This document shows, piece after piece, positions 2,470-23,398 of a stretch of 64,000 bases of DNA. The stretch's first letter is position 1, and each line of letters opens with the position of its first letter. The notes below the pieces were generated by a model that searched no databases, was not told where the DNA came from, and saw nothing but the letters and a program-made list of their open reading frames with translations. This stretch comes from a virus, in IMG/VR virus record IMGVR_UViG_3300021602_000003, positions 1 through 64,000 of that record. One strand, given 5' to 3'. The translations under genes and the position numbers were made by a program.

Positions 2470-2509
2470 ATAGATTTTATGATTACATTTTTATAGTGAT
2501 AAATGTTAA

Positions 2510-3280
2510 ATGAATATACACATAATTACAATGCCTCGCTCTGGATCTAAAACTGTGATGCAATATATGACCTTATATTATCGAGAAAAATATAAAAATC
2601 TTTTTGTTTCCACACTAATAAGTACAAAGGATATTATTTGGCAAGGACTGAAGTCTGCGTGGAGTGTAGATGAATTTCTTAATCACCACCATAAAGGGAT
2701 GTTTCAAGGTCATGCTGAAATATTAAATCGATTTGAAATTCTGGTATCAGATAAAAAAATAGATTCGATAGAAAAAGAATTAATATCGAGGCTAGATATT
2801 ATACAAAACTTAACCGAACCATACATCTTAAAACATTTTCCCAGAGGATATACTCATATCACTGATCAGTTAATATCGATACCGGCTAATATTTATTATA
2901 TTACACGCGACGATATATTTAATCATACACTAAGTTGGGCTCTTTCTCAACGACTCGCATCGTGGGTAAACAATAATCATCAGAAAAATATGATTTCTCT
3001 ATCAGAGAATAGTCCGATTACTGTTGATCATATAGCATTCCGCGGGCTATTAAGAGAATTGTTGCATTTTAGTAAGAAATTTAATGATGGCAGGCCTGTT
3101 ATTAGATTCGAAGATATAATTGCACTAAATAACGCCAGGGATTTCTGTACTTTATTTAACTTAGATTTTGTAGATTTTGAATTTGTAAAAATAGGAGAAG
3201 AATTTGGAAACCATAAATTGCAGATGATAGCCAATATAAATGAGCTTCACGATATTTACACCGAAGAAATAGAAGAATGA
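2510..3280 (+). CDS. Sulfotransferase-like protein
   Basis: 256 residues. It begins with a strand and a phosphosulfate-binding-type loop, IITMPRSGSKTVMQY (residues 4-18). Near 130-145, YYITRDDIFNHTLSWAL resembles the second PAPS-contact region of sulfotransferases (R-D...S). These enzymes move sulfate from PAPS to hydroxyls or amines. It overlaps the next gene by 4 bases (ATGA) and lies between a PP-loop gene and a methyltransferase, suggesting a tailoring role. A weak late box (GATAAATG, 2498-2505) precedes the ATG. A different P-loop transferase cannot be excluded. Confidence 0.6.
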   Translation: MNIHIITMPRSGSKTVMQYMTLYYREKYKNLFVSTLISTKDIIWQGLKSAWSVDEFLNHHHKGMFQGHAEILNRFEILVSDKKIDSIEKELISRLDIIQNLTEPYILKHFPRGYTHITDQLISIPANIYYITRDDIFNHTLSWALSQRLASWVNNNHQKNMISLSENSPITVDHIAFRGLLRELLHFSKKFNDGRPVIRFEDIIALNNARDFCTLFNLDFVDFEFVKIGEEFGNHKLQMIANINELHDIYTEEIEE

Positions 3281-4026
3281 GTAATCATATTCATCAATAT
3301 TATCCTGTATTCACATATTTTGCAAATCAGTTAGATCAATCGTCAGAGTGGTGGACTGATAAAAAAGTATTAGATTTTGGTGGAAATTGTGGTAACATCT
3401 TAAGAGATCCGAATTGCACTATTAAGCACGAAAATTATTATTGTTTAGATATATCGTCGGCCGCTATAGAAAAAGGAAGAGAAGATTTTCCAGAAGCACA
3501 TTGGCATCATTATAATCGATTTAATATCGCATATAATTTCGATGGTAATAAAGATGAACCGTTTCCCGTGTTTTCTGAAAAATTTGATATGATTCTAATT
3601 TATTCAGTTTTTACATCTACTTCTAGGTCCGAAATGATAAGATGCATAAACTTAGAATTATTACCGTTATTAGATCACGCCGGGATACTTATCAATACAT
3701 ACCTAAGTTTAAATAATTATGGAGTATTAAAAGGATTCTTAAATAAACGACAAACAAAAAAGGAAGACCAAATTAATATATTAAATAAGATTTATGGAAA
3801 AGAATATTTTTATTTAATAGGGGAAGATATAGTTAGCACAGAGGAAGATTTTATAAATTATAATAATCAAGGATGGGCATTGTCTTTTTATAAAGATGAG
3901 GAAATTTGCAGAATATTTCCTGATTGTGAAATTAAATCGTTTAAATTAAGTACTGACGGCCAAAGAACTAAATTAGTACATCATAGTATGCTAATTTGTG
4001 CCCGGGTCGATAAAATTCAATTTTGA
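3277..4026 (+). CDS. SAM-dependent methyltransferase
   Basis: 249 residues. Motif I is VLDFGGNCGNILRD near residues 30-43. An acidic strand end, YYCLDIS, follows near 55 and would bind the ribose of SAM. FDMILIYSVF near 105-114 fits motif IV/post-I. This is a class I Rossmann methyltransferase; the substrate is unknown. It is coupled to the sulfotransferase-like gene upstream, and its 3' end overlaps the converging QueC-like gene by 36 bases. Confidence 0.75.
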   Translation: MSNHIHQYYPVFTYFANQLDQSSEWWTDKKVLDFGGNCGNILRDPNCTIKHENYYCLDISSAAIEKGREDFPEAHWHHYNRFNIAYNFDGNKDEPFPVFSEKFDMILIYSVFTSTSRSEMIRCINLELLPLLDHAGILINTYLSLNNYGVLKGFLNKRQTKKEDQINILNKIYGKEYFYLIGEDIVSTEEDFINYNNQGWALSFYKDEEICRIFPDCEIKSFKLSTDGQRTKLVHHSMLICARVDKIQF

Positions 4027-4593
4027 AAATGCCCATGCTCGTTCCTTACAGAAGAAGCATTCGTTGCATCGCCCAGCTACTTTCATGCAACATGAATGTG
4101 TAAGTTTAAGCATTTCTTCTATCTTGTATTGATAGTATAAAGAGATAACAAATGCCTTATCATAATTAAAGAATGGATGTTGACGTATATCTGTTCGAAT
4201 AGTATTTTCTCTGGCCGGGTATGTAAAGGTTGTGTCTAATTGTATATCTGGGTTCTTAGTTGTGCCTGTAAGAAGAATATCGGCCTTATATTTAAGCAAA
4301 GCATCTTTCATCCCGGATCCGACAAATTTACTATGATGCACGTCTGCATCACCTACATAAATTACGTCTGGCAATTCTATATTGAAATAACTTTTTAAAT
4401 AATTTAAAACATTAGTTGTATGAGCGATAGTCCCGGTTCGTCGAGATACAGAATAAGGGACAATTTTACAGTTTTTATTTTCTTCTATATTTTGTTTATG
4501 TATTAAATAAAGGAGTATAGAACTATCTGCACCACCGGAAAACATTACACCCAGATGTTTATCATGATAGGAATCTATTATATTCATATTCAT
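3991..4593 (-). CDS. QueC/ExsB-like PP-loop protein with zinc-binding C terminus
   Basis: 200 residues on the minus strand, ending in TAG. The PP-loop is FSGGADSS near residue 18. The C terminus reads CCMKVAGRCNECFFCKERAW, matching the C...C-x2-C-x2-C-x2-R zinc site of QueC. QueC makes 7-cyano-7-deazaguanine (preQ0), a precursor of queuosine and of phage 7-deazaguanine DNA modifications. The other preQ0 genes (folE, queD, queE) are not in this window. It is the only minus-strand gene of the block and the only PP-loop member here with the cysteine cluster. Two in-frame ATGs (4593, 4587) are possible starts; a minus-strand TATAAATA overlaps the first. Confidence 0.7.
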   Translation of the reverse strand: MNMNIIDSYHDKHLGVMFSGGADSSILLYLIHKQNIEENKNCKIVPYSVSRRTGTIAHTTNVLNYLKSYFNIELPDVIYVGDADVHHSKFVGSGMKDALLKYKADILLTGTTKNPDIQLDTTFTYPARENTIRTDIRQHPFFNYDKAFVISLYYQYKIEEMLKLTHSCCMKVAGRCNECFFCKERAWAFSKLNFIDPGTN

Positions 4594-4619
4594 ATTTATA
4601 TAATACCGATTGATATCAT

Positions 4620-4627
4620 GATAAATA
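4620..4627 (+). promoter_or_regulatory. Late promoter box GATAAATA
   Basis: Lies 8 bases before the ATG at 4636, so a late transcript would have almost no leader. It favours 4636 over upstream in-frame ATGs that would overlap the divergent gene. Confidence 0.5.
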
Positions 4628-4635
4628 CCTGTACA

Positions 4636-5085
4636 ATGCAGAATATTGAAGAAATTAATTTTAAAACTATATTAGATATATGGAAAAACGAATTATGGCC
4701 CGGCAGAACATCACCTATAGAAACGCATAGTGCTATGTTATATCTTCGTAATCATGATATGAATAATTTTTCATTACCAAATTGGTACTATGGATGTTAT
4801 ATAGATAACAAACTAATAGGAGTCAATAGTGGACATCTCTGTGTTAATAACAATGTTAGATCAAGAGGCCTCTGGGTTTGCCCGGAATATCGTAAAAAAG
4901 GCTACGGAAAACAGTTATTATCGGCGACTATAGACAAGGCAAAAACACTTAATGCTTCTTTTGTTTGGAGTTACCCCCGAAAGTCATCCTGGGTGACTTA
5001 CAAATCTGTCGGATTCGAATTAACGACTGAATGGCAGAAAAGCGAAACAAGCGATGCGAATTGTTATTGTATACTAGATCTATGA
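4636..5085 (+). CDS. GNAT-family N-acetyltransferase
   Basis: About 149 residues from ATG 4636; an in-frame ATG at 4618 lies before the late box. The acetyl-CoA signature is WVCPEYRKKGYGKQLLSA, with the R-x-x-G-Y-G pyrophosphate loop, followed by a helix, then WVTYKSVGFE, the usual beta5-alpha4 end of GNATs. It acylates an amine on an unknown partner. It overlaps the next PP-loop gene by 4 bases, so the two are likely co-translated. Confidence 0.8.
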   Translation: MQNIEEINFKTILDIWKNELWPGRTSPIETHSAMLYLRNHDMNNFSLPNWYYGCYIDNKLIGVNSGHLCVNNNVRSRGLWVCPEYRKKGYGKQLLSATIDKAKTLNASFVWSYPRKSSWVTYKSVGFELTTEWQKSETSDANCYCILDL

Positions 5086-6002
5086 ATATTTACACATCAG
5101 AAGATAATTGGTATAAATGGCGCTATAGTAATGGTCCACTGTTTGGCAGAAGAGAAAGAAATTTTAATTCATTGTTCGAGACGGAATATACCAAATATTA
5201 CGGTCAGGTAGGCACCTTTAAAGAAGAATTACAGAAGGCAGCAAGAAGCACGCTAGATCATTTTCCTGGATTACGACCTTCTATATTATTCAGCGGAGGT
5301 ATGGATAGCGAGGTTCTTCTAAGATCCTTTATTGATATTGGGGCAAATCCTGCCGTGTATGTTTTTAGATACGAAGATAATATAAATTATGAAGATGTGT
5401 TAATGGCAGAAACTGTATGTAGAAATTTGAAAATAAATTATAATATTATTGATTTTAAATTACAAAAATTCTTAGAGAATGAAGTAGAGAAGATATCAGA
5501 AGAGTCCGAAATAGATTATCCTACAGCTTTGACACATATGAAATTTTTTGAATTAGTCGATGGTTTGCCGATATTAGGTGGCGGCGACCAATGTTGGATA
5601 AGGAATAATAGCGATTACACTACTAGGGGTATATGGTCCGGGGTGTGCAACGAATTTGAGATAGGCTGGTCGAAATATATTCGACTACACAATTTACAGG
5701 CAGTAGCAGAATGGTATAAATGGAGTCCTGGATTAATAATATCATATTTAAGATTAAAATGGTTTAACGATTTAATCGATGATAAAATTTATGGTAAACT
5801 AGGTGTAAATTCGACCAAATATATCGGATATCAAACTGTGTATCCTGATATTATTGTGAGAAAGAAATTAACCGGATTTGAAACAATCCAGGATTTAGTT
5901 ATAGAGATTGAGGCAACACTTAAGGATAAATATTCCACCTTACCTTATCGAAATACATATAATAGAACTATAGATCGGGTATCCGAAGAGTTAATAGGGT
6001 AA
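5082..6002 (+). CDS. PP-loop ATP-pyrophosphatase-like protein
   Basis: 306 residues. PP-loop SGGMDSE near 71; PILGGGDQCW near 164; RKKLTGFE near 259. The N-terminal W-x-K-W and GTFKEELQKAAR resemble the 10459 paralogue (GTFREECVRAAK). The ATG is placed inside the GNAT stop (ATGA) rather than at upstream GTG codons in the GNAT gene. It is followed 4 bases later by the radical SAM gene. Confidence 0.75.
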   Translation: MNIYTSEDNWYKWRYSNGPLFGRRERNFNSLFETEYTKYYGQVGTFKEELQKAARSTLDHFPGLRPSILFSGGMDSEVLLRSFIDIGANPAVYVFRYEDNINYEDVLMAETVCRNLKINYNIIDFKLQKFLENEVEKISEESEIDYPTALTHMKFFELVDGLPILGGGDQCWIRNNSDYTTRGIWSGVCNEFEIGWSKYIRLHNLQAVAEWYKWSPGLIISYLRLKWFNDLIDDKIYGKLGVNSTKYIGYQTVYPDIIVRKKLTGFETIQDLVIEIEATLKDKYSTLPYRNTYNRTIDRVSEELIG

Positions 6003-6006
6003 CTAA

Positions 6007-7584
6007 ATGACAGTTGACATTTTATTATTTACAGATAATACACATATACTATTTGTGAGACCTGCCGGTGCATACGCAGTTGCTACGACATTACGAGCTG
6101 CCGGTTATAGCGTTCAGGTAGTAGATCATTTTTTATTACTGGGCGTGGAAAAAACACTGGCAATAATAGATAAATTTGTAGGGCCAAATACTTTATTTGT
6201 TGGATTCGGTACCACATTTATGAATCCAACATACAGGCACCTTAAAGAGGCCGAAGTTAATAATCAAATATTTACTTACGATGGCTATTGGACTACAACT
6301 TCAAATAGGAATATTTATGTTGACACCATAGCCTATAGAGTACCAATAAGCGATCCAGAGATGGATGCCATTAAAAATAGAATTACATCTATAAATTCGA
6401 AGACAAAATTAGTAATCGGCGGATCTAAAGCAAATGACTTAAGACAGTCGCAAATGGATGTGTTTATTATCGGTTATGCTGAGCAGAGTGTTGTAGATTT
6501 CGCAAAGTATCTTCAGGGAAAAAATCCGTTTTTTCATTATAGAACCACACAAGCTGGTCAGATGATTGTTGATCACGATATTGATGCAAAAAATTATAAT
6601 TTTTCAGAATCGGGTATAAGGTTTTCTTCAACAGACTTAATTGACAGTACAGAACTCTTACCGTTGGAGGTTGCTCGCGGCTGCATATTTAAGTGTAAAT
6701 TTTGTTCGTTTCGACTCATCGGGAAGAAAAAGAATGATTACACAAAAACATTTGAGGCATTATATAGTGAGTTAATGTATAATTATGATAATTTTGGAGT
6801 AACAAGATACACATTTGTTGACGATACATTAAATGAATCTATTTACAAACTTGACCATATATTAAGGGTGGTAAAAAAGTTGCCATTTAAACTAGAAATT
6901 GCATCATACATAAGACACGATTTAATACATACCTATCCCGAGATGGCCGATATGTTATCTGAAATTGGATTAAAAGCGGCATGCTTTGGTATTGAATCTT
7001 TAAATCATGAGACAGGAAAGCTTATTGGTAAGGGGTTGCATCCAGAAAAAACCAAAGAATTATTAACTTGGTTACGTAATGAAAAAAAATGGAAGAATAA
7101 TATTCTTATGTATTCGGGTTTTATAATAGGTTTACCTAAGGATACAGTAAATACGGTTACAACCTGGACAGAAGAAATATCGGACCCTAGTTATCCGCTA
7201 GATTCTGTCTATATTATTCCATTAATGATGATTAGTGATTCTACTCGTTTAAAAAAATCAGAATTTGAGCTTAATTATGAGAAATATGGATACACGTACG
7301 AGACAGGTTCGACTGTTAGGTGGAAAAATAAAGACTGGACTTATGATAGTGCAACTGCCTTTGCAAAGAAATATACGCTCCGCAATTGGGAATCGAAACG
7401 AAATACTGTTACCTCATTTGCTTCTGTGGCATTAAGAAGTTATGGATATTCCTGGGAACAAATTTTTGCCATGCGTGAAAAGGATTATAATTGGCACAAT
7501 ATATTTCAGACGAACATTATTCGAACAAATACATATTATGATAACTTAATAGGAAATCAGAATGGGCCTGTTAGTAACATTTGA
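6007..7584 (+). CDS. Radical SAM enzyme, B12-binding-type architecture
   Basis: 525 residues. The N-terminal 170 residues look like a Rossmann B12-binding-type domain (LLFTDNTHILFVRPAGAYAV), but I see no clear DxHxxG cobalamin motif. The radical SAM cluster is CIFKCKFC near residue 226 (CxxxCxxC), preceded by LEVARG as is usual in this class. VDDTLNES and GIESLNHETGKLI fit the later barrel motifs. Such enzymes do methylation, methylthiolation or C-C chemistry. It overlaps the next PP-loop gene by 23 bases. It is the only radical SAM gene seen in the block. Confidence 0.8.
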   Translation: MTVDILLFTDNTHILFVRPAGAYAVATTLRAAGYSVQVVDHFLLLGVEKTLAIIDKFVGPNTLFVGFGTTFMNPTYRHLKEAEVNNQIFTYDGYWTTTSNRNIYVDTIAYRVPISDPEMDAIKNRITSINSKTKLVIGGSKANDLRQSQMDVFIIGYAEQSVVDFAKYLQGKNPFFHYRTTQAGQMIVDHDIDAKNYNFSESGIRFSSTDLIDSTELLPLEVARGCIFKCKFCSFRLIGKKKNDYTKTFEALYSELMYNYDNFGVTRYTFVDDTLNESIYKLDHILRVVKKLPFKLEIASYIRHDLIHTYPEMADMLSEIGLKAACFGIESLNHETGKLIGKGLHPEKTKELLTWLRNEKKWKNNILMYSGFIIGLPKDTVNTVTTWTEEISDPSYPLDSVYIIPLMMISDSTRLKKSEFELNYEKYGYTYETGSTVRWKNKDWTYDSATAFAKKYTLRNWESKRNTVTSFASVALRSYGYSWEQIFAMREKDYNWHNIFQTNIIRTNTYYDNLIGNQNGPVSNI

Positions 7585-8398
7585 CCCGTTTAGGGTGATA
7601 TACCCCGAGATTACTTCTGCTATTAAGGATTTTAAATCTGAGTGTATTTTAGCAGTCAACAAGATCGCAGATAAGAATACAGATAAATTACCCTACGCCA
7701 TAATGGTTAGTGGTGGAATAGATAGCGAATTAGTTGCAGAATCATTTTTATTAGCAGGTGAACATTTTATTTGTGCCATAGGTAGATTAATGACCTCGAT
7801 TAATGGCCATCGAATCGAGTTTAACCAGGATGATTATCGATATGCAGTAGATTGGTGTATTCGAAATAATGTTGAGATAATATTTGTAGATATTGATATA
7901 TTTAAATATAATGATTTAATATGTAAGTATACATTAGATTCTGCGGGATTTTCCCCGCAGTATGGCTGTCATATGTTTGTTATGAAACAATTGAGTGATA
8001 TGGGTTATTTTTTTGTTGCTGGGAACGGTGAAATGGATTTTGTATTAAGAAATAACAAATATTTTATGCTCGACGAACAACGAGAATTTACATTGTTAAA
8101 TTTTTGTAAGAATAATAATTTATGCGGTGAATTTCAATTCTGGAAGCAAGATAGCAGATTAAGTGCTTCTTTTCTACAATTGCCTACAGTAAAAAAGTTA
8201 ATGGAACGGAAAGTTACGAATATACTAGATTTCAAACACGTTTGTTTCGCCGATGTCTTTAAATCTGCTGCCAGAGTAAAACATACTGGTTTTGAATCAA
8301 TTCAGCAATGGGACTATATACATAGAAATTATTTAAAGACAATAAACGGGCAGTTTGATGAGAAATTTTATACACCGGCGGAGAAATTTATATTATGA
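7562..8398 (+). CDS. PP-loop ATP-pyrophosphatase-like protein
   Basis: 278 residues. PP-loop SGGIDSELVAES near residue 49; AGNGEMDFVL near 153 in place of the GGGD block; RVKHTGFESIQQW near 238. Slightly shorter at the N terminus than its paralogues. Start ATG 7562 lies within the end of the radical SAM gene; its own stop overlaps the Bug-like gene (ATGA). Confidence 0.73.
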   Translation: MGLLVTFDPFRVIYPEITSAIKDFKSECILAVNKIADKNTDKLPYAIMVSGGIDSELVAESFLLAGEHFICAIGRLMTSINGHRIEFNQDDYRYAVDWCIRNNVEIIFVDIDIFKYNDLICKYTLDSAGFSPQYGCHMFVMKQLSDMGYFFVAGNGEMDFVLRNNKYFMLDEQREFTLLNFCKNNNLCGEFQFWKQDSRLSASFLQLPTVKKLMERKVTNILDFKHVCFADVFKSAARVKHTGFESIQQWDYIHRNYLKTINGQFDEKFYTPAEKFIL

Positions 8399-9288
8399 GA
8401 CTGTTAAGTATTTTGATAATAGTATTAGCTTCGACGGTTGCTAACGCAGGCACAATAAATACCGAACTAGCAAAATTACCTAGAGAATTTAATGTGTATT
8501 CGTCGCAGTCTTCGGGTACCAAAGATACTGTTTGCAGGTCAATTCTGGACATATATTCCAAAAAATTTAATGCAATTCCGGTAATTATTGTTAAAAAGGG
8601 CGCAGGCGGAACAATTGCAATGGAAGAGATGCTGAAGGATAAGAAATTCTCAGTTTTATGTTCTGGACCATCAGAGAGTATATACAATATCACGGTATTT
8701 CCGGGGCACGAAAAAGAATATAAAATGTTAACCATGGTAATAATATTGGCTATCGGGCCAACAACAATTTACACAAAGACTGATGGTAAGTTTAATTCAA
8801 TCAATGATCTCCAGAAAAAGTCGTTTATAACCGTAGGGTTTAATGCTCAGGGGCCGAGATCGATAGCAGAAATAATATTTCAGAATAAAGATGTTGTCTG
8901 GGTACCATTTATAAACTCGGTTGATTCGTTATCGTCGTTAATGGATGGTTCTCTGGATGTGTATATTGATAGTGGTAGCTTAGAAGAAATGGCAAGAGCC
9001 AATAAGATTAAAAGTTTAGGACATTTTGGTGGGACACCCGACCTATTAGGGAGCGATCTGGGATTCGATTTCCCGCAAGCAGCAAAGTTGCCAGCATTCG
9101 TTGCCTTGACTACATCTATAAATAATTCTTTAGATGATATAGAGCAACTAAATGTTGAATTAAGAAGCATTATTAATTCAGCAGAATATGCAATAGCTAT
9201 TGCGAAAATAGGATGGGTACCGGTAAGTTTCACAGTTAAGAACTCTAACGAATTGGCAGAACAATTCAAATCTTTGTTAAAAAAATAA
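8395..9288 (+). CDS. Bug/TctC-like periplasmic solute-binding protein, copy 1
   Basis: 297 residues with a clear signal peptide (MRLLSILIIVLASTVANA, cut near residue 19). The body matches the Bug receptor pattern: a mature N terminus with the ligand loop, GAGGTIAMEEML near 70, then SLMDGSLDVYID. Bug proteins bind small carboxylates in the periplasm and are greatly expanded in Burkholderiales. A phage copy without transporter membrane genes is unusual. The next PP-loop gene starts 1 base after its stop. Copy 2 is at 12905; 35 bases (8614-8648) are identical between them. Confidence 0.75.
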   Translation: MRLLSILIIVLASTVANAGTINTELAKLPREFNVYSSQSSGTKDTVCRSILDIYSKKFNAIPVIIVKKGAGGTIAMEEMLKDKKFSVLCSGPSESIYNITVFPGHEKEYKMLTMVIILAIGPTTIYTKTDGKFNSINDLQKKSFITVGFNAQGPRSIAEIIFQNKDVVWVPFINSVDSLSSLMDGSLDVYIDSGSLEEMARANKIKSLGHFGGTPDLLGSDLGFDFPQAAKLPAFVALTTSINNSLDDIEQLNVELRSIINSAEYAIAIAKIGWVPVSFTVKNSNELAEQFKSLLKK

Positions 9289-9289
9289 A

Positions 9290-10462
9290 ATGTCGCATCA
9301 CTATAAACTCGGATTCTACAACGTCGGGGATAGAACTTTTCTAAATAAGGCCGATGCGTTAATAGAAGCAACCCGCCTCAATACTTCTGTATATTGGAAT
9401 TTTAATGATTCTGTATTCTCCTCTATAGACTGGAGTATACCGATAACAACCGGATTAAATGAACTCTATAGGAAAAGGGCATTGCAACTTAGGGAAAAAT
9501 ATGATTTTATTTCTCTATATTATAGTGGCGGAGTAGATAGCACAAATGTATTACACTCTTTTATTAATAATGGAATATTATTAGATGAAGTAGTAATGTA
9601 TCGCCCCAGAATTTTAGAATCAGAATCTAATTCACTTGATAGAACAAATAAGAATATATTTTCGGAAATAGAATTTGCAGCAATACCTTACCTACAAAAA
9701 GTGCTAAAGGATAGTCGCACTAAGATTAGAATTATTTATATTGATGAATCTATAAACGATTATCTTTCGGATGATAAATTGGTAGACGAGTTTCAAACTA
9801 TTAATTTGTTTATGCCTACCGGGGTCGGCCGATTATCAATGAATCTAACAGACTCGACATGGAATAATTTATTATCTAATGGCAAGAAGCTATGTCATTT
9901 ACACGGGATAGATAAACCTATACCCAAATTAGTAAATGGAAGATATACATTTCAATTTCATGATACTGCTGTAACTCCTGCAGTTAATATTCCTAAATAT
10001 AATTCGGCACGTTCGGAAATGATGGACCATCAATATCATGAGTTATTCTATTGGACACCAGACCTACCACAAATGGTAATTAAGCAGTGTCAGGTGGTTA
10101 AAGATATTAACACAGACGGATCTTTAAATTCGCTGTTCGAAAACTCAGATAGATGGAAACAAGATAAATTTACCTTCATACATAAATTTATCTATCCGGC
10201 ACAGGTTAATGCTGTTCGAGATCTATTTGTCACTGAAAAACCGGGACCCGATATTTATTCGGGACAGGGTTCTTGGTTCTACGATAAAATGAATGAATAT
10301 TCAAAGGGAGTATTTAGCGATATTATTAAGAACATGCAAGATAATATAGATACTAGATTCTTTCGTGGTTTTAATAATACTAATTATTATCTGGAAGACC
10401 CCGATACAGGTAGCCCAAAAACGGGATTAAGAGCTATTAAAAGTAAGGCACATATACTATGA
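9290..10462 (+). CDS. Long PP-loop protein (asparagine-synthase-like), copy 1
   Basis: 390 residues. PP-loop YYSGGVDSTNVLHSF near 76-90, then DEVVMYRPRI. It lacks the GGGD and RPKxxGFE blocks of the shorter paralogues and has its own features: HLHGIDKP near 204 and FYWTPDLPQMVIKQCQ near 262. The basic end (RAIKSKAHIL) is unexplained. The nearest relative is the 404-residue gene at 13789, and both directly follow a Bug-like gene. A synthetase or amidotransferase role is plausible; there is no N-terminal glutaminase Cys. Confidence 0.72.
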   Translation: MSHHYKLGFYNVGDRTFLNKADALIEATRLNTSVYWNFNDSVFSSIDWSIPITTGLNELYRKRALQLREKYDFISLYYSGGVDSTNVLHSFINNGILLDEVVMYRPRILESESNSLDRTNKNIFSEIEFAAIPYLQKVLKDSRTKIRIIYIDESINDYLSDDKLVDEFQTINLFMPTGVGRLSMNLTDSTWNNLLSNGKKLCHLHGIDKPIPKLVNGRYTFQFHDTAVTPAVNIPKYNSARSEMMDHQYHELFYWTPDLPQMVIKQCQVVKDINTDGSLNSLFENSDRWKQDKFTFIHKFIYPAQVNAVRDLFVTEKPGPDIYSGQGSWFYDKMNEYSKGVFSDIIKNMQDNIDTRFFRGFNNTNYYLEDPDTGSPKTGLRAIKSKAHIL

Positions 10463-11412
10463 AAATTGATTATACTCACAATAATTTCTTTAGGTGTGGT
10501 TGGGGGGATAAAAACACATTTAATTTTAAAAATAAAAAAGATTTAGACTATTGGGTCACGTATGACTGTGCCAAACAGATGCCGGGTACCTTTAGGGAAG
10601 AATGTGTGCGTGCTGCAAAACTAATAGGCAAACAATCGAAAAAACCGATATTAATATTCTTTTCAGGCGGAATCGATTCCGAGATAACAGTAAGATCATT
10701 TATGGATGCAAATGTAGATTTTACAGTTTGCATTGTCAATTTGTATTATGATAATATCTTATCTAATACACATGATACTAATTTTGCATTTTCTTTTGTT
10801 AAGCAGCATAATCTGTCTGTGAAAGAGATTGATTATAATTTCAGCAATTTCATGAATGAAAGATATATTGATGGTGTATATACATACCAGACGTGGTTAC
10901 CTGGATCGATAATGCATGCCGAATTAGTTAGTATGTTGTGCAAAGATTATCTATGCGTGTTCGGCCTCGGCGATATCCTGCTAAAACGGGCAAGACATAA
11001 TGGGTATCCCGATGTGGATGGTATCTCTGTTATATCGGACCCTAAATCAGTTACTGCTATTCATGCGGGAGCTCTGATGGCTGAGCCGGTAATTGCTGAA
11101 TTTCTTGCTTATACACCTGAACAGATGTTGTCGTGGATGTTACATCCCGATATTCAAACTTTTATTAAGTATGAGAGAGCATTTCCTATACTAGACATAT
11201 ATAACTTAAAACCATTTATCTATTTTAAGATGTGGCCGGATATGGCAGTAAGGCCAAAATATTCTGGATTAGAAGGCATACATCGTCTTTCAAAAAAAGA
11301 AATTTGGATGAACGACCCTGTTTTTAAAGAAGGTATGAATATAACTTCACAAATGAATGTGAAAGTTCACATCTCGAGCTCAGAATTAATTTCGATGCTA
11401 TTACCGAGGTAG
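10459..11412 (+). CDS. PP-loop ATP-pyrophosphatase-like protein
   Basis: 317 residues. PP-loop FFSGGIDSEITVRSF near 66-80; CVFGLGDILLKRA near 165; MAVRPKYSGLEGI near 262. Overlaps the gene before by 4 bases (ATGA). It ends in TAG (11410-11412), and the next gene's ATG is in frame three bases later, so amber read-through would fuse two PP-loop proteins. The window encodes a CTA-anticodon tRNA. Confidence 0.75.
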   Translation: MKIDYTHNNFFRCGWGDKNTFNFKNKKDLDYWVTYDCAKQMPGTFREECVRAAKLIGKQSKKPILIFFSGGIDSEITVRSFMDANVDFTVCIVNLYYDNILSNTHDTNFAFSFVKQHNLSVKEIDYNFSNFMNERYIDGVYTYQTWLPGSIMHAELVSMLCKDYLCVFGLGDILLKRARHNGYPDVDGISVISDPKSVTAIHAGALMAEPVIAEFLAYTPEQMLSWMLHPDIQTFIKYERAFPILDIYNLKPFIYFKMWPDMAVRPKYSGLEGIHRLSKKEIWMNDPVFKEGMNITSQMNVKVHISSSELISMLLPR

Positions 11413-11415
11413 ATT

Positions 11416-12360
11416 ATGTCTGTATATAATAATTATTTTCAGTGTTACTATAATAAAGATCCCACGCAGATTCTTAGAAAGAGTGTTGACGATAAATGGG
11501 GATTACATTTTAACATTACAGGAAATTGTAAAATAAAGTCGTTTAAAGAGGAGGTATTGAATTCTTGTGAACTGATGTATGACGCATTCAAAATATATAC
11601 ACCTAAATTGAATTTATTTTTTAGTGGTGGTATGGACTCTGAATGTATGCTTAGATGCTTCACTGAACTCAAGATACCGGTAAATCCTGTTATTATCATT
11701 CACTGTGGAGAAGAATCAGCACCTGAAGCGCAGCAGGCATTACGTATCTGTAAGGAATTATCATTAGTACCGACAATTATAAATATTGACCTATCCAAGC
11801 TTTTCGGCGCCGGGGTATGCCACGATATTGGAGAAAAATATAGAACTAAAGAGCTGGCAATGGTTGAATTACTATATGTAATGGAAAAATTACAAGAGCC
11901 TTCGATACTATGTGATGATGTTCAACTCTTTTATCATAGTTCTTCTAAGAATAAACTTTCTAAGAGCGAAACCAATTATCAACAATGGTTTTATTCTATA
12001 AGAGAAGATCACGACGCTGTGTTTGATCGGTTCGAATATATTACAGGTATTCCTGTATTTGCTGATACATATAAGTTTACCAAGGAGTCATGGGCTGCAA
12101 TGCTTATGACCCCTGTTATTCAAGATATAGTCTTGAATAAAAGAGGAAAAGCAAGTGGAAAATCATCTAAGAATAAAATGATGTCAGCAGAATTCGATAC
12201 GGAATGGAGAGAAAAGACCGCAGTCTTTTCATCTGGGAATATTCTTCGCATCACACGGACATTACATAAAGATTTGGGAGAATTGATACCTGTTAGTAAT
12301 ACCCATACTATTGAGTATTTCAAATTATTATCTTTATTGGGAGCATATGATTCAGTATAA
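11416..12360 (+). CDS. PP-loop ATP-pyrophosphatase-like protein, divergent
   Basis: 314 residues. PP-loop FFSGGMDSECMLRCF near 67-81, then PVIIIHCGEESAPEA. The acid-rich block SILCDDVQLF near 157 replaces the GGGD loop, and the C-terminal RPKxxGFE motif is not seen, so it may have a different substrate or be a non-catalytic partner. SFKEEVLNS resembles the N-terminal region of the 5082 and 10459 proteins. Its end overlaps the next gene by 14 bases. Confidence 0.72.
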   Translation: MSVYNNYFQCYYNKDPTQILRKSVDDKWGLHFNITGNCKIKSFKEEVLNSCELMYDAFKIYTPKLNLFFSGGMDSECMLRCFTELKIPVNPVIIIHCGEESAPEAQQALRICKELSLVPTIINIDLSKLFGAGVCHDIGEKYRTKELAMVELLYVMEKLQEPSILCDDVQLFYHSSSKNKLSKSETNYQQWFYSIREDHDAVFDRFEYITGIPVFADTYKFTKESWAAMLMTPVIQDIVLNKRGKASGKSSKNKMMSAEFDTEWREKTAVFSSGNILRITRTLHKDLGELIPVSNTHTIEYFKLLSLLGAYDSV

Positions 12361-12904: not shown

Positions 12905-13792
12905 ATGATTTTAAGAAATATATTGTTATGTGTGTTGGTATTGTTTGCCCCGTATTGCCGGGCATCCTTACCGAACGAATTTTTTGTTTATACGCCACAT
13001 GCTGGTGGTAAAGATGCTGTGTGCAGGGTAATATTTAAGTTATATGCTGAAAAATATTTAGCAAATCCTGTATTTATAACTAAACAAGGTGCATCTGGAT
13101 TAATTGCAATGGAAGAGATGCTGAAGGATAAGAAATTTTCTGTTCTTTGTTCAGGAAACTCGGAGAGTATGTTTAATAATGAACAATATCCGGGGCACGA
13201 GGAATCACACAAATTATTAATGTTGGTATCAACTACAGCTCAGGTAACAACCGGTTTTTACACAGGGGTTAATAATCCTGCAAACGATATAAGAGAGTTA
13301 TTAAAAACATCGAAGCTAATAAAGGTGGGGTATCATACAAATGGTACTAAGTTCATAGCCCAGGTAGCATTTAATGATTATCCGATATTGTGGGTACCCT
13401 ATAAGACACCTGGGGACTCTCTGCCATCGTTAATAGACGGCTCGCTCGATTTATATACCGACGGTGGTTCTTTGGATATATTAGTTAAAGGCGGGAAAAT
13501 AAAAAGTATAGGACATATAAATGGTGCCGATAGTACATCCGGTCCTGATGTGACTAAAGATTTCCCCGACGCGGCAAAAATTAAGAGTATTCTTGCAATT
13601 TCGACTTCTTTATTAAACAACATGGAAGACATTGAGGAATTGAATCAACGGCTCAAGCCCTTAATCTATCATCCCGACGTTGTGAAGATCTTATCTGATT
13701 ATGCTGGTATATCTTATTGGCTATCTGTGAAAGATTCGAATGATCTTATTACCTATATGAGAAGCAAATATAAATTGCTTGGTAACAGATGA
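12905..13792 (+). CDS. Bug/TctC-like periplasmic solute-binding protein, copy 2
   Basis: 295 residues. Signal peptide ILLCVLVLFAPYCRA (cut near residue 20). Domain features match copy 1: FVYTPHAGGKDAVCRVIF, GASGLIAMEEMLKDKKFSV, SLIDGSLDLYTDGG. A good ribosome-binding site (AGGAG, 12895-12899) precedes it. It overlaps the following PP-loop gene by 4 bases, repeating the order seen for copy 1, so the pair is a duplicated module. Confidence 0.75.
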   Translation: MILRNILLCVLVLFAPYCRASLPNEFFVYTPHAGGKDAVCRVIFKLYAEKYLANPVFITKQGASGLIAMEEMLKDKKFSVLCSGNSESMFNNEQYPGHEESHKLLMLVSTTAQVTTGFYTGVNNPANDIRELLKTSKLIKVGYHTNGTKFIAQVAFNDYPILWVPYKTPGDSLPSLIDGSLDLYTDGGSLDILVKGGKIKSIGHINGADSTSGPDVTKDFPDAAKIKSILAISTSLLNNMEDIEELNQRLKPLIYHPDVVKILSDYAGISYWLSVKDSNDLITYMRSKYKLLGNR

Positions 13793-15003
13793 CAATATTA
13801 TCTTTAACAAAACACAAGAGATTGGGGCATTATAGGGCGGGCAGCAAAATATTTTTTAATAAAATTGATGCAGTATATTATGCCACTGAACAACTGAAGG
13901 AAGGGAACGATCATTCCGTCTACTGGGAATTTAATAAGGATATCTTTTCTAAATTTGACTGGAAAGATCCGATTAAACAATCGTTGTCCGAGTTATATTA
14001 CTGCCGAGCAAAACAATTACGTGACAAATATGATTATTTGTCCCTATTTTATAGTGGCGGCGTAGATAGTACGAATATACTTCGTGCATTTGTTGATAAT
14101 GGTATTTTTTTAGATGAAATTGTAATGTATAGGCCCGTGGTTTTAGAACCTTCATTTAATAAGGAAAGCACAAAGACAGATAATGTTTATTCAGAAATTA
14201 AGTTTGCTGCGATACCGTATGCTGAAAAATATGCTGATAAGAGAACAAGTATTAGGGTATTAGATATGTGTGACCCGGTTGAAAAATTTCTAACTAACGA
14301 GGAATTAATAAAGCAATATTGGGGAATTAATAAATGGTTCTCACCAAATTCTATAGCAAAGACAGCAATAGGTATTTTTGATCCTCACTGGTATTCTTTA
14401 TATGAATCTGGAAAAACAGTGGGACATATTCATGGTGCAGAAAAACCTAATATGGAAATAACGGATAATGACGAATATTATTTTCACTTCTATGATTGGC
14501 TCTCTCATGTGGTTTCCCCGTCATTTGATACAGATAGGTCATTAATAATAGAAAATCATCAATTTATTGAACCATTTTATTGGACACCGGATGTGCCCGA
14601 ATTAGTCATCAAGCAGTGTCAAACAATTAAAGAATCGTGCCGAGACCCGGCAGTTAAACAGGTATTTAAAACACACCAAAAGTTTGATGCCGGCGCCAAT
14701 CGACGTAAATTTACAAATTCGGCCCTATATTCGCCAGATATATTAGCAGTAAGAGAAATGTTCAATGCTGAAAAGCACGGTCTCGGGTTACATGCACCAC
14801 AAATGGACTGGTTCTATAAGTACATGTCTAAACCAGTTCTTGATAGATTCTGGTGTATTGTCACTGACATACGAAGAGAGGTTGACGGAAGATTTTTCAT
14901 GACAACCCTGCCATCGGGGCCCATATTAGTAATGAACACGGGCGACGCCCCGACAAAAAAATGGATGTTTCGACATGCTACGTCAGACCCTTATTTTCTG
15001 TAG
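13789..15003 (+). CDS. Long PP-loop protein (asparagine-synthase-like), copy 2
   Basis: 404 residues. PP-loop FYSGGVDSTNILRAF near 87-101 and DEIVMYRPVVLEP; HIHGAEKP and FYWTPDVPELVIKQCQ match the 9290 protein. Ends in TAG with an 18-codon extension possible before TAA. It closes the PP-loop block; the spanin genes follow behind a late box. Confidence 0.72.
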   Translation: MTILSLTKHKRLGHYRAGSKIFFNKIDAVYYATEQLKEGNDHSVYWEFNKDIFSKFDWKDPIKQSLSELYYCRAKQLRDKYDYLSLFYSGGVDSTNILRAFVDNGIFLDEIVMYRPVVLEPSFNKESTKTDNVYSEIKFAAIPYAEKYADKRTSIRVLDMCDPVEKFLTNEELIKQYWGINKWFSPNSIAKTAIGIFDPHWYSLYESGKTVGHIHGAEKPNMEITDNDEYYFHFYDWLSHVVSPSFDTDRSLIIENHQFIEPFYWTPDVPELVIKQCQTIKESCRDPAVKQVFKTHQKFDAGANRRKFTNSALYSPDILAVREMFNAEKHGLGLHAPQMDWFYKYMSKPVLDRFWCIVTDIRREVDGRFFMTTLPSGPILVMNTGDAPTKKWMFRHATSDPYFL

Positions 15004-15068: not shown

Positions 15069-15494
15069 ATGGGCGTTATCGCAATATTATTAAAAAATAG
15101 AAGCTTAGTTGGTTTGGGGGTTTTGCTATTAGCACTTGCTGGTACAGGCATATACATAAAAGTGTTAAAAGGTGAAGTATCGACTTTAACTGCTGAAAAG
15201 AATACGCTTATTGCTGAAAAGAATACGCTTAAAATGGAACTTGTCCTCTCGCAGGATTCTGTAAAAAAATTGCAATTAGCAGTTGACGAGCAAAATACAG
15301 CAATTAAGAAACTTAAAGATGATGCAGATGCTAGATTAGTAGCACATCAAGTCGAAATTAAGAAAGCAAAAGATAAAGCAGCATCTTATAAGAAGTTAGC
15401 AGACGAACTAATGAACCTAGTTCCGGCGCCCGGCAAGCCTATATGTGATGAAGCAAATGCTTTAATCAATAAGGAGATCAACAGTGAAAAATAG
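15069..15494 (+). CDS. Inner-membrane spanin (Rz-like)
   Basis: 141 residues: one N-terminal membrane segment (about 8-30, LVGLGVLLLALAGTGIYI), then a long periplasmic coiled coil rich in Lys, Glu and Ala. This is the layout of i-spanins, which join the outer-membrane spanin to fuse the two membranes at the last step of lysis. A 7-residue repeat (AEKNTLI/AEKNTLK) at about 42-55 comes from a 21-base tandem repeat. It overlaps the lipoprotein gene by 11 bases, as in other Rz/Rz1 pairs. Stop is TAG. Confidence 0.8.
   Translation: MGVIAILLKNRSLVGLGVLLLALAGTGIYIKVLKGEVSTLTAEKNTLIAEKNTLKMELVLSQDSVKKLQLAVDEQNTAIKKLKDDADARLVAHQVEIKKAKDKAASYKKLADELMNLVPAPGKPICDEANALINKEINSEK
15190..15231 (+). repeat. 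21-base tandem repeat in the i-spanin gene
   Basis: Two copies of a 21-base unit centred on GCTGAAAAGAATACGCTT. It adds one heptad (seven residues) to the coiled coil, so copy-number change would lengthen the rod without breaking frame. Confidence 0.85.
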
Positions 15495-17891: not shown

Positions 17892-18262
17892 AGCTACTTA
17901 GAGTAGCAAACTGCGGTAGATAAATTGTTGCGGACGGGGATGCAAATTCCCCCACCTCCACCATAAGCATATTAGCTCCACGGAGCCCCGGTTATCGTTC
18001 TAGACGCGGGATAACGGAATAGTATGTTTTTGATGGGGGTGACTAGTTTCGACGTGGTAGTGGACTATCGTAGTGATCGGGAACGTGAAACCCGCAAGAC
18101 CGTGGTAACTCGGTTAAAGACACATATCAAAGTAAATGCAACAGCATATACAAACGAGTCTTTTGTAGCCCTTGACATGTCAGCTTTCGCTGACAGCGAT
18201 ATGGCTGTGGAAATGGTTGCCTAAGAAACACCAACTCTGTGGTAGAAAGACCATATAACCAA
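17892..18262 (+). ncRNA. ssrA: Circularly permuted (two-piece) tmRNA with a long tag
   Basis: The acceptor piece comes first: T-arm GGGGA-TGCAAAT-TCCCC (17936-17952), acceptor strand CACCTCC and ACCA ending at 17963. After about 70 bases comes the 5' end of the coding piece, GGGGGTG (18035-18041), which pairs fully (one G-U) with CACCTCC, then the tmRNA signature TTTCGACG. This is the permuted arrangement of alpha-, some cyano- and one lineage of betaproteobacteria. tmRNA frees stalled ribosomes and tags the peptide. The likely resume codon is GCA 18138, giving ATAYTNESFVAL..., which resembles usual tags but continues to TAA at 18222 (28 codons). The ORF here (66 codons) is not a protein gene. 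Confidence 0.85.
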
Positions 18263-18271
18263 ACCAATCAA

Positions 18272-18297
18272 GAAGCACCTTCGGGTGCTTTCTTTTT
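18272..18297 (+). terminator. tmRNA terminator
   Basis: AGCACC-TTCG-GGTGCT followed by TTCTTTTT. A stable UUCG tetraloop and U tract make this a strong intrinsic terminator. Confidence 0.9.
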
Positions 18298-18381: not shown

Positions 18382-19374
18382 TTGAAGAAACTATTAGCAA
18401 TTTTATTATCTACTGTCGCAATAACAGCAACAGCACAAGACATTACAGGAGCCGGTGCAACATTCCCGGCTCCTTTGTATTCAAAGTGGGCAGCGGCCTA
18501 TAACAAAGAAACCGGTGTTAAAGTAAACTATCAAAGCGTTGGTTCGGGCGCCGGCATCAAACAGATTGAGGGCAAGACTGTGGTATTTGGCGCAAGTGAT
18601 ATGCCACTCACCGATGATAAGTTAGCTGTAATGGGTCTATTCCAATTCCCGACAGTTATCGGTGGCGTTGTTCCCGTAGTTAATCTTAAAGGTATTAATC
18701 CCGGCGATATGAAACTAACCGGTACTGTTCTTGCTGACATTTACTTGGGTAAGATCAAGAAGTGGGACGATGCTGCTATCAGAGCACTGAATCCAACCCT
18801 TGCTCTACCGTCGATTGATATTATAGCGGTGCGTAGAGCGGATGGCAGCGGTACAACATTTATATGGACTAACTATCTAAGTAAGGTTAGCAAAGAGTTT
18901 AAAGATGTTGTAGGCGAAGGCACTGCGGTCAACTGGAGAGTCGGAGCAGGTGGTAAGGGCAATGAAGGTGTGGCAGCAATGGTCAAACAACTCGCTGGTT
19001 CTTTAGGTTATGTCGAATATGCTTATGTCAAGCAAAACAAGATGACTTATGTACAAGTTCAAAATGCCGCAGGTACATGGGTTGCTCCAGAAGAAGATGC
19101 GTTTAAGGCAGCAGCCGCTGGGGCAGATTGGAATAAGAGTTATTACCAAATTCTGACCAATCAAAGCGGTAAAGGTGCTTGGCCCATTAGTGGAGCAACA
19201 TTCATCCTCATCTATCAGAAGCCAGACAATGCTAATCAAGTTAAGGTGGCATTAAATTTCTTTGATTGGGCATTTACGAGTGGCGATAAAGCAGCAGACG
19301 AGTTAGACTATGTTGCACTACCTAAATCAGTAAAAGATAAGATTAGATCAGATTGGAAAAGACTTGGTATGTAA
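18382..19374 (+). CDS. pstS: PstS phosphate-binding protein
   Basis: 330 residues with a signal peptide (KKLLAILLSTVAITATA). The mature start DITGAGATFPAPLYSKW is the PstS hallmark; SVGSGAGIKQI, GASDMPL and RADGSGTTFIWTNYLS supply the phosphate-binding loops. Length is normal. The start is TTG behind AAAGGAG, and no ATG fits. It captures phosphate in the periplasm for the host PstCAB transporter, so it works as an auxiliary gene during phosphate limitation. Pho box upstream. Confidence 0.93.
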   Translation: MKKLLAILLSTVAITATAQDITGAGATFPAPLYSKWAAAYNKETGVKVNYQSVGSGAGIKQIEGKTVVFGASDMPLTDDKLAVMGLFQFPTVIGGVVPVVNLKGINPGDMKLTGTVLADIYLGKIKKWDDAAIRALNPTLALPSIDIIAVRRADGSGTTFIWTNYLSKVSKEFKDVVGEGTAVNWRVGAGGKGNEGVAAMVKQLAGSLGYVEYAYVKQNKMTYVQVQNAAGTWVAPEEDAFKAAAAGADWNKSYYQILTNQSGKGAWPISGATFILIYQKPDNANQVKVALNFFDWAFTSGDKAADELDYVALPKSVKDKIRSDWKRLGM

Positions 19375-20734: not shown

Positions 20735-21604
20735 ATGAACATGATAAACAATCAGCTGGCCGTGGCAATAAAACATAACGGCAAAATCCTTAGAGAAACA
20801 AAAGACTTAGTACACTTGCCTTACGGCAGTGAATTTAGCGTTTTAGTTAAAAATCTCAACTCTAAACGGGCAAAATTTACTCTGCACATTGACGGTACAG
20901 ATGTACTAGACGGCGAAGAAATTATTGTCAACGGGAACTCGGAAGTCGACATAAAGCGATTTATTCGAAACGGTAATATGAATGAAGGTAACGCCTTTAA
21001 ATTCATAGAAAGAACACAAGCAATTGAAGACGGACCGCGTGGCGTAAAAGTCGACGACGGGATTGTTCGTGTTGAATTTTGGTTTGAACAAGATCAAGCC
21101 GAAATTAAGATTAACGACATTTATTGGGATAAGCACCACTATCGTGATTATTATCACCAACCATATAGGTGGCCCGATATAGTTGGTACAACACGTTACG
21201 GAAACGATTATTCGAAAGGCATTAGCGGTGCGAGCGGGTCTGCTGGGACATTCGGCGATGCACAGTATATGAATACATCGTGTGCGTCGGCACTTAGTAG
21301 GGGTATAGTAAATCAGGTATCGGTCGGAAACCTGCAGGCAACTGCATCATCGGTTCCTGTGAGTGATGTGGGTATTACAGTACCCGGTTCGAAGGTAGAT
21401 CAAAAATTTACACCAGTATATGGTTTTAAATCAGAACTCAATTCGCATGTTATTATTATCAGAATGGCAGGTATGGTAGGTACAGTCGAGGTAGTAGCAC
21501 CGATTACGGTTAAGACAAAACAGAAGTGTTCGACCTGCGCCCGTATCAATAAGGCAACATCCGCCTTTTGTAGCGGTTGCGGAACCTCGCTTAATATAGT
21601 ATAA
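20735..21604 (+). CDS. Hypothetical protein with C-terminal zinc ribbon
   Basis: About 289 residues from ATG 20735 (AAAGGAAA before it). The N-terminal 130 residues look like a beta-sandwich (EFSVLVKNLNSKRAKFTLHI). The middle is Gly/Ser/Ala-rich and probably extended. The end is a zinc ribbon, CSTCARINKATSAFCSGCG. Possibly a virion surface or scaffold protein. No family recognised. Confidence 0.6.
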   Translation: MNMINNQLAVAIKHNGKILRETKDLVHLPYGSEFSVLVKNLNSKRAKFTLHIDGTDVLDGEEIIVNGNSEVDIKRFIRNGNMNEGNAFKFIERTQAIEDGPRGVKVDDGIVRVEFWFEQDQAEIKINDIYWDKHHYRDYYHQPYRWPDIVGTTRYGNDYSKGISGASGSAGTFGDAQYMNTSCASALSRGIVNQVSVGNLQATASSVPVSDVGITVPGSKVDQKFTPVYGFKSELNSHVIIIRMAGMVGTVEVVAPITVKTKQKCSTCARINKATSAFCSGCGTSLNIV

Positions 21605-21997: not shown

Positions 21998-22366
21998 ATG
22001 AATTTCATTATCAATAAAGAAGAGTATTTAAAATTAATTGCCGCATGGAAAACTATTCCAAATCGCAATGCACAATATCACATTCTATACAATGTGCTCA
22101 GGGGATTTGACCTTAAACGCGGTTTTAGCCCAATACAAAAACAAAGTAAGTTATCGAACGGTGCAACAGAATGGCAGGCATTCGATACCGCCAAAAAAGA
22201 AGTCTGGTGGCTACTACGCGAACCGACCTTTTATGATGGCGATTCTGCAGATAGAAGAGTAAGAAAAGAGCAAGAATTAAAAGATCGAATTAAATTTTTA
22301 AGTGAAAAATTCGGCATCACATTCACAGCTGAACTATTAGCAGCACTCAGGGAATTGCTCAAATGA
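21998..22366 (+). CDS. Hypothetical protein
   Basis: 122 residues, mostly helical, with paired Trp residues (KEVWWLLREPTFY) and a charged C-terminal helix (EKFGITFTAELLAALRELL). Ribosome-binding site AAGGA. It overlaps the Pth2-like gene by 4 bases, so the two are co-translated. No family recognised. Confidence 0.65.
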   Translation: MNFIINKEEYLKLIAAWKTIPNRNAQYHILYNVLRGFDLKRGFSPIQKQSKLSNGATEWQAFDTAKKEVWWLLREPTFYDGDSADRRVRKEQELKDRIKFLSEKFGITFTAELLAALRELLK

Positions 22367-22796: not shown

Positions 22797-23360
22797 ATGT
22801 TAAAATGTATATGTGGAAAAGAATTCGAAACTTACCGACAATTAAATGGTCATAAGAGTGTCCATAGTCGTGGTGAGGACTATACGAATAGCAGGAAAAA
22901 AGAAATAAAGACTTACAATTGTAGGTATTGTGGAAAGACCAATAAGATTAGCATACATAACCATAATATCTATTGTAATAATAGATGTCAGGGCGACTAT
23001 ACATGGAAATTAACTAAAGAAAAAATAGAAAACGGAACGCGCCCTGCTAATAAGAAGTATATAATAGAAAAATTTGGAAATACCTGCTCTGAATGTGGAT
23101 TAGGTAATATATGGAACGGAAGAGAATTAAGTCTTCAGCTGGACCATATCGATGGCAACAGCGATAATAATGATATCAATAATTTAAGAATATTATGTCC
23201 TAATTGTCATACGCAAACTGATACATTTGGTAGTAAACGTAATGGTTCCGGTATCAAGAAGATTACAAAAAGAAATATGTATTTAAGAAATTATCAATCA
23301 TCTGAAATTATTGGAATAAGAACTGCGACTGAAGCTGATAGGAATAGCAAGGATCTCTAA
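22797..23360 (+). CDS. HNH endonuclease with zinc fingers
   Basis: About 187 residues from ATG 22797. It starts with a C2H2-type finger (CICGKEF...HKSVH), then CRYCGKTN...CNNRC, then the HNH core CSECG...LQLDHIDGN...LCPNCHTQ. Similar in plan to the protein at 300. Its 3' end overlaps the first half of the suppressor tRNA gene, the stop TAA falling in the anticodon loop, so the nuclease gene has grown into or invaded the tRNA flank. Confidence 0.82.
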   Translation: MLKCICGKEFETYRQLNGHKSVHSRGEDYTNSRKKEIKTYNCRYCGKTNKISIHNHNIYCNNRCQGDYTWKLTKEKIENGTRPANKKYIIEKFGNTCSECGLGNIWNGRELSLQLDHIDGNSDNNDINNLRILCPNCHTQTDTFGSKRNGSGIKKITKRNMYLRNYQSSEIIGIRTATEADRNSKDL

Positions 23361-23398
23361 AATTCTGATAGTGGGTTCAATTCCCACCCGTCGCACCA
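23325..23398 (+). tRNA. Suppressor tRNA (anticodon CTA, reads UAG)
   Basis: Acceptor GCGACTG pairs with CCGTCGC (one mismatch), D-arm GCTGATAGGAATAGC, anticodon arm AGGAT-CTCTAAA-ATTCT, T-arm GTGGG-TTCAATT-CCCAC, A-CCA encoded. T33 is followed by CTA. Charging identity cannot be read off. Seven genes in the window end in TAG, four of them in frame with a close downstream start. Confidence 0.85.

What the first reader, a model, noticed from the sequence alone, without database searches (positions are those of the whole stretch)
17892..18262. Phage-encoded permuted tmRNA with an unusually long tag
The acceptor half (ends at 17963) precedes the coding half (starts 18035), and their acceptor strands pair over 7 bp. 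A two-piece tmRNA in a phage is notable. The tag from GCA 18138 begins like common tags (ATAYTNESFVAL) but runs 28 codons to TAA at 18222 and ends in MVA rather than the usual A-L-A-A or A-V-A-A. A TCAGC/GCTGA hairpin (18179-18194) lies within the extra part. An altered end could spare tagged proteins from ClpXP or mark them differently, letting the phage release ribosomes without host degradation.
Basis: partly seen in the sequence, partly recalled or inferred. Interest (0 to 1): 0.82.

Follow-up and report, generated by a model that had tools for sequence, protein, structure and literature searches.

The report
Phage tmRNA with conserved long tag
This large phage carries its own two-piece ribosome-rescue RNA (tmRNA) that encodes an unusually long 28-residue tag; related phages keep the same long tag as a peptide, so it is a real, selected feature rather than a reading error, although what the extra part does is still unknown.

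Summary
Rfam's permuted-tmRNA model (RF04321) scores 68.1 bits (cut-off 47), and ARAGORN gives the same gene, frame and 28-codon tag, ATAYTNESFVALDMSAFADSDMAVEMVA. The acceptor stem has the G3·U70 alanine identity pair. Permuted tmRNAs in phages are already published.

What is new is the tag. Five other phage contigs encode clear homologues (e.g. ANAYTTESFVALDLSALADSDMAMEMAA), four of them beside shared neighbouring genes; a sixth, distant phage shares the DLSAFAD core. Length differences are whole codons, pooled pN/pS is 0.36 and variation concentrates at third positions, so the long tag is selected as a peptide. Other phages carry different 25-31-residue tags. None of 84,980 bacterial and archaeal species genomes holds the core coding pattern.

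The idea that the MVA end spares proteins from ClpXP is not supported: sister tags end EMAA or LLAA, and VA ends recur. The phage also encodes ClpX, ClpP, a ClpA-like protein and ClpS, but no detectable SmpB. Its ClpX lacks the RKH loop that E. coli ClpX uses for ssrA tags; that loss also occurs in phages with ALAA tags or no detected tmRNA, so strict tag-protease co-evolution is not supported. Tag fate needs experiment.

The parts
17925..17963 (+). Acceptor (3') half of the tRNA-like domain, with T arm (T-loop TGCAAAT 17941-17947), acceptor strand CACCTCC 17953-17959, discriminator A 17960 and encoded CCA 17961-17963
   Evidence: RF04321 match, ARAGORN 3' tRNA domain, sequence
17964..18034 (+). 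Intervening segment between the two halves, expected to be removed to give a two-piece RNA (inferred)
   Evidence: Position between the two tRNA-domain halves
18035..18060 (+). 5' half of the tRNA-like domain: acceptor strand GGGGGTG 18035-18041 with G3.U70, D-loop CTAGTTTCGAC (A at position 18)
   Evidence: ARAGORN 5' tRNA domain; covariation with T-loop G55
18061..18137 (+). Coding-piece segment upstream of the tag; ends in the resume-site motif AGTAAAT
   Evidence: ARAGORN resume consensus agtaaatgcaacagcata
18138..18224 (+). Tag frame: 28 codons ATAYTNESFVALDMSAFADSDMAVEMVA plus TAA stop (18222-18224)
   Evidence: homologous tags and codon-level conservation
18225..18262 (+). Conserved 3' part of the coding piece after the stop (GAAACACCAACTCTGTGGTAG...)
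   Evidence: Nearly the same sequence follows the stop in L202, L211 and L212
18272..18296 (+). Terminator-like hairpin and T run
   Evidence: Consensus scan; 1 found, 0.7 expected from shuffles, so weak on its own

Best explanation
This is most likely a working phage gene for a two-piece tmRNA that releases ribosomes stalled on broken mRNAs during infection. The precursor is probably cut into an acceptor piece and a coding piece, charged with alanine and carried by the host's SmpB. The ribosome then switches to GCA 18138 and adds Ala plus 28 residues. The tag is best read as two parts: a phage-specific front part (...SFVALDMSAFAD...) and a hydrophobic end (...EMVA) that still acts as a degradation signal for Clp proteases, the host's or the phage's own ClpX/ClpP/ClpA-like set. 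Shown here: the gene architecture, the reading frame, conservation of the tag as a peptide, the phage Clp genes, and no detectable phage SmpB gene. Inferred: processing, charging, tagging and the fate of tagged chains.
For: RF04321 over its cut-off and ARAGORN agreement. Homologous long tags in L209-L213 and a related core in L374. Whole-codon length changes, pooled pN/pS 0.36, third-position excess p = 0.008 for six and 0.002 for seven sequences. Shared neighbouring genes in L209-L212 and in short-tag relatives L214 and L240. A18/G55 covariation in the tRNA-like domain, which argues against decay. Some long tags end in nearly canonical tags, e.g. ...AANDSRFALAA and ...MNDEQFEMAA. Phage ClpX, ClpP, ClpA-like and ClpS.
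Against: No expression, processing or tagging data. The window's RF04321 score (68 bits) is lower than that of relatives (81-125 bits), and its branch in the tmRNA tree is long. The window tag ends VA, and its third residue after the charged Ala is T rather than the usual N. The phage ClpX lacks the RKH loop and Thr199, so it may not read ssrA-like ends at all.
Confidence: 0.6

Rival explanations
1. One reading: the long tag with its MVA end does not lead to degradation, so the phage frees ribosomes while sparing or re-labelling the unfinished proteins.
For: The window end is VA, not AA; substitutions of the penultimate tag residue raise KM for E. coli ClpXP (PMC7652416). The phage ClpX lacks RKH and Thr199.
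Against: Close homologues of the same tag end EMAA and LLAA; VA ends occur in short tags too (ANNEMFALVA); LVA and AAV variants are used as degradation tags (PMC9382460).
Confidence: 0.15
2. A private circuit: the phage's own ClpX/ClpA-like/ClpP, or an adaptor such as ClpS, recognises the conserved front part or the altered end, and tag and protease have co-evolved.
For: The phage and its sister G054 encode ClpX, ClpP and a ClpA-like protein; the ClpX degron-reading residues are changed; the front part is conserved as a peptide.
Against: RKH-less ClpX also occurs with ALAA tags (G105, G116) and in phages without a detected tmRNA (G014, PA5oct, Paride). ClpP was found in all 14 further large phage records checked, with or without tmRNA.
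Confidence: 0.15
3. The extra residues are neutral: the tag grew by chance insertion or loss of an earlier stop and has no specific role.
For: Tags of different lengths and sequences occur among related phages at a shared locus.
Against: Peptide-level constraint across the front part (pN/pS 0.36) and survival of the core in a distant phage.
Confidence: 0.07
4. A decayed tmRNA remnant that is no longer functional.
For: Lower model score than relatives and a long branch.
Against: Intact acceptor stem, T stem, resume site, open frame and stop, compensated D/T-loop contact.
Confidence: 0.03

Closest known systems
Permuted (two-piece) tmRNA, Rfam RF04321; nearest older clade model beta_tmRNA RF01850
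   Same: Order of halves, tRNA-like domain, resume site and tag frame
   Different: Tag of 28 residues against a most frequent length of 10 (PMC11915505); ends EMVA
Two-piece tmRNA of marine phage Melnitz and other phages (PMC9004378)
   Same: Phage-encoded permuted tmRNA
   Different: That paper describes a glutamine riboswitch; none was found by Rfam in this window. A conserved long tag is not described in the passages I read
Mesoplasma florum ssrA tag read by Lon (PMC9382460)
   Same: A longer tag with an unusual end; a known change of protease
   Different: A bacterial cellular system; its tag ends NYAFA and is read by M. florum Lon; no Lon was found in this phage
Large phages with Clp genes: Sinorhizobium phages AP-J-162 (PMC11242549) and Phosso
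   Same: A phage tmRNA together with ClpX; AP-J-162 also has several Clp ORFs, DnaJ and Hsp20
   Different: Phosso's tag, read by eye, is short and canonical (ANDNVSTKVALAA) and its ClpX keeps Thr199 and RK-N

Membership tests
Permuted tmRNA (RF04321) | Score over the family's curated cut-off | tested here: met
   68.1 bits vs 47
Permuted tmRNA (RF04321) | Acceptor half upstream of coding half, joined by a 7-bp acceptor stem with G3.U70 | tested here: met
   Sequence and ARAGORN structure
Permuted tmRNA (RF04321) | Resume site and open tag frame with stop | tested here: met
   frame confirmed by homologues
Permuted tmRNA (RF04321) | Processed into two pieces, charged with Ala, bound by SmpB | not testable with these tools
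   No RNA or protein data; no phage SmpB detected, so the host's would be needed
Betaproteobacterial tmRNA (RF01850) | Score over the family's curated cut-off | tested here: not met
   38.1 bits vs 84, partial match only
ssrA degradation tag of the E. coli type | C-terminal Ala-Ala | tested here: not met
   Ends Val-Ala; homologues L212, L210 and L209 do end Ala-Ala
ssrA degradation tag of the E. coli type | Directs tagged proteins to Clp proteases | not testable with these tools
   Needs a reporter assay
ClpX (encoded elsewhere in the phage, L298:731-1966) | Equivalog score and zinc-binding domain | tested here: met
   469.8 bits vs 359; PF06689 39.8 vs 27
ClpX that reads ssrA tags in the E. 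coli way | Pore-1 GYVG, pore-2 Thr199/Val202, RKH loop Arg228/His230 | tested here: not met
   GYVG and Val202 kept, Thr199 replaced by Gly, RKH loop deleted; roles of these residues from PMC7652416

The most novel reading that the evidence does not exclude
A group of large phages runs a partly private trans-translation pathway: its own two-piece tmRNA adds a long, phage-specific peptide whose conserved front part is recognised by a phage-encoded factor (RKH-less ClpX, the ClpA-like protein, ClpS or an unknown adaptor), so that tagged chains are routed away from the host's normal ssrA route.
Probability: 0.15. Interest if true: 0.85.

Novelty: new variant of a known kind. Interest (0 to 1): 0.55.

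Why it matters
tmRNA tags are most often about ten residues and are seen as simple degrons. Phage lineages that keep distinct 25-31-residue tags under peptide-level selection suggest that the tag can carry a second signal. This phage and several relatives also encode Clp unfoldase and protease genes, so the question 'who reads a viral tag?' becomes directly testable.

Tried and rejected
(1) Alternative frame or short tag: rejected by homologues. (2) The hairpin in the tag as an RNA element: 4 of 5 core pairs are forced by the codons for Ser-Ala-x-Ala-Asp; the free pair is A-U in four sequences, G-U in one, U-A in one and mismatched in one; inconclusive, and the overall fold is no better than shuffles. 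(3) Tag end coupled to ClpX residues: looked good at first, failed when extended (G105, G116). (4) ClpP as a tmRNA-specific partner: found in all 14 further large phage records checked. (5) A single origin of long tags: the tmRNA tree has only 87 usable columns and is unresolved. (6) An isolate with the window's long tag: none found in the phage collection. (8) The one bacterial contig matching the resume-region pattern (L259) has no tmRNA call.

Full report
What is there. Window 17925-18262 (+) is a complete permuted tmRNA gene in a virus record of 166,256 bases. The acceptor half ends in an encoded CCA at 17963 and the coding half begins at 18035. The 7-bp acceptor stem contains G3.U70, the alanine identity pair (established knowledge). 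RF04321 matches 17901-18224 with 68.1 bits against a gathering score of 47, and ARAGORN calls the same gene independently. The tag frame runs from GCA 18138 through 28 codons to TAA 18222-18224. A terminator-like hairpin follows at 18272-18296.

Phage permuted tmRNAs are not new. One paper counted 53 two-piece tmRNAs among 133 unique phage tmRNA structures (PMC9004378). I found 69 distinct tag strings from permuted calls, mostly in viral contigs, including phage isolates of Xanthomonas, Pseudomonas, Alcaligenes and Bordetella. A few of these calls are doubtful (L005, L021, L282).

The long tag is real and selected. A degenerate pattern for LD.SALADSDM found five viral contigs, all with tags homologous to the window's: L212 ANAYTTESFVALDLSALADSDMAMEMAA, L211 ANANTSESFVALDLSALADSDMAMEMVA, L213 ANANTNGSLVTLDLSAFADSDMGLEMVA, L210 ANANTTETVALDLSALADSDMMLLAA and L209 ANAITTETALDLSALADSDMMLLAA. 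A more distant phage (G103, 385 kb) has ANNVSTEFASFDLSAFADAEVAFA. All length differences are whole codons. Pooled pN/pS among the six close sequences is 0.36, and differences by codon position are 66, 43 and 133. Variable sites concentrate at third positions (p = 0.008; p = 0.002 with the seventh sequence). These counts treat related sequences as independent, so the p-values are optimistic, but pN/pS is below 1 in every pair. This also confirms the frame and the stop codon.

Place in the genome. In the relatives the tmRNA lies near a spanin-like gene homologous to window 15069-15494 (L212, L211, L209, L240, L214) and next to a homologue of the gene at 20735-21604 (L212, L209, L210, L240) or of 21998-22366 (L211, L214). 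The spanin reading is mine, from size and lipoprotein-like signals, not from a family search. Short-tag phages (L240 ANNEMFALVA, L214 ANDTHYAIAA) share this neighbourhood with long-tag phages. So the locus is conserved while the tag changes.

A wider group of long phage tags. A pattern for the resume region found 49 viral contigs. Their tags are 10-14 or 25-31 residues, with none between. The long ones fall into several sequence groups, such as ANADTFDFSAMSFTGNTV...ALAA and ANASTGEVTVSGKNVKFSARTVKADSFAV. Some end in a nearly canonical tag (...RGAANDSRFALAA...MNDEQFEMAA), which suggests an added front part upstream of a retained degron (inference). The groups examined show pN/pS of 0.37-0.59. 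The pattern choice biases this sample, so the proportions are not population estimates. None of the genomes of 84,980 bacterial and archaeal species holds the core coding pattern of the window's tag, and only one contig, without a tmRNA call, holds the resume-region pattern. A tmRNA tree with 87 usable columns could not say whether long tags arose once.

The tRNA-like domain is maintained. The window has G at T-loop position 55 and A at D-loop position 18. Over distinct tRNA-like domains here the two go together: G55 with A18 in 13 and U55 with G18 in 80. Ten of the 13 were counted by the script; three were mis-set because TAGAT was taken for the TCGAC anchor, and I re-read those by eye. One domain has C55 with G18 and one ARAGORN call could not be scored. 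G at this T-loop position is known in Caulobacter (PMC1168896). This argues for a functional RNA.

Who would read the tag. The phage encodes ClpX (above two NCBIfam equivalog cut-offs), ClpP (above NF001368), a ClpA-like protein (869.8 bits, below the equivalog cut-off of 993), ClpS (Pfam 73 bits vs 23), Hsp20 and DnaJ. In record coordinates ClpX lies at about 104.7-106.0 kb, ClpS at 106.8-107.1 kb, ClpP at 115.7-116.3 kb and the ClpA-like gene at 134.0-136.2 kb, all outside the window. SmpB and Lon were not found; the record may be incomplete. The phage ClpX keeps the pore-1 GYVG but lacks the RKH loop and has Gly at Thr199. In E. coli ClpX, T199A, R228A and H230A strongly raise KM for ssrA-tagged substrates, and human ClpXP, with Leu at the positions of Thr199 and His230, does not degrade them (PMC7652416). 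I tested whether this tracks the tag. G066/G077 (ANDEQFALAA, identical ClpX) and Phosso (ANDNVSTKVALAA, read by eye) keep these features or nearly so. However, G105 (ANDSFYTEALAA) and G116 (AANDAVFALAA) have canonical ends with RKH-less ClpX, and G014, PA5oct and Paride have RKH-less ClpX with no tmRNA found. ClpP was found in all 14 further large phage records checked. So the ClpX change belongs to a ClpX clade, and strict co-evolution with the tag is not supported.

Fate of tagged proteins. Close homologues end EMAA and LLAA, VA endings recur, LVA and AAV variants are used as degradation tags (PMC9382460), and the phage carries a Clp set. I therefore think degradation more likely than sparing, perhaps slower with the VA end. 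A longer tag with an unusual end paired with another protease is known from Mesoplasma florum (PMC9382460), so the end alone does not settle it. This part is inference.

Verdict. A genuine new variant of a known kind: a permuted phage tmRNA whose long tag is conserved as a peptide. The role of the conserved front part is open and testable.

Noticed in passing
window 17941-17947 and 18035-18060; L011, L018, L027, L029, L043, L070, L100, L208, L219, L223, L230, L237: T-loop G55 always goes with D-loop A18, and U55 with G18, over 93 scorable distinct phage tmRNA tRNA-like domains: a covarying tertiary contact.
   Followed up: partly
L298:731-1966, L301, L304, L305, L343-L367 (ClpX); L340, L341 (PA5oct, Paride): A clade of phage ClpX proteins lacks the RKH loop and usually Thr199 while keeping GYVG, so its substrate choice probably differs from that of bacterial ClpX.
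   Followed up: partly
L298:1905-2216: The ORF after ClpX looks like ribosomal protein bS21, the same neighbour as in PA5oct and Paride; identity not checked by family search.
   Followed up: no
window 23325-23398: ARAGORN calls a tRNA with a CTA anticodon ('Pyl'), a possible amber-suppressor tRNA (Rfam tRNA 45.3 bits).
   Followed up: no
window 1567-12360 and 13789-15003: A run of repeated ORFs with an SGG(x)DSE-like motif near the start of each, resembling ATP-pyrophosphatase (asparagine synthase-like) proteins, mixed with a radical-SAM-like ORF (by eye).
   Followed up: no
window 18382-19374; L214:11274-11363: A PstS-like phosphate-binding protein lies right after the tmRNA; the relative L214 keeps only a 30-residue stretch of it, which looks like a remnant.
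   Followed up: no
L277 (Xanthomonas phage XacN1): Two equally scoring permuted tmRNA copies in one phage genome; the tag ANANTFDYALAA starts like the long tags but has only 12 residues, a possible intermediate.
   Followed up: no
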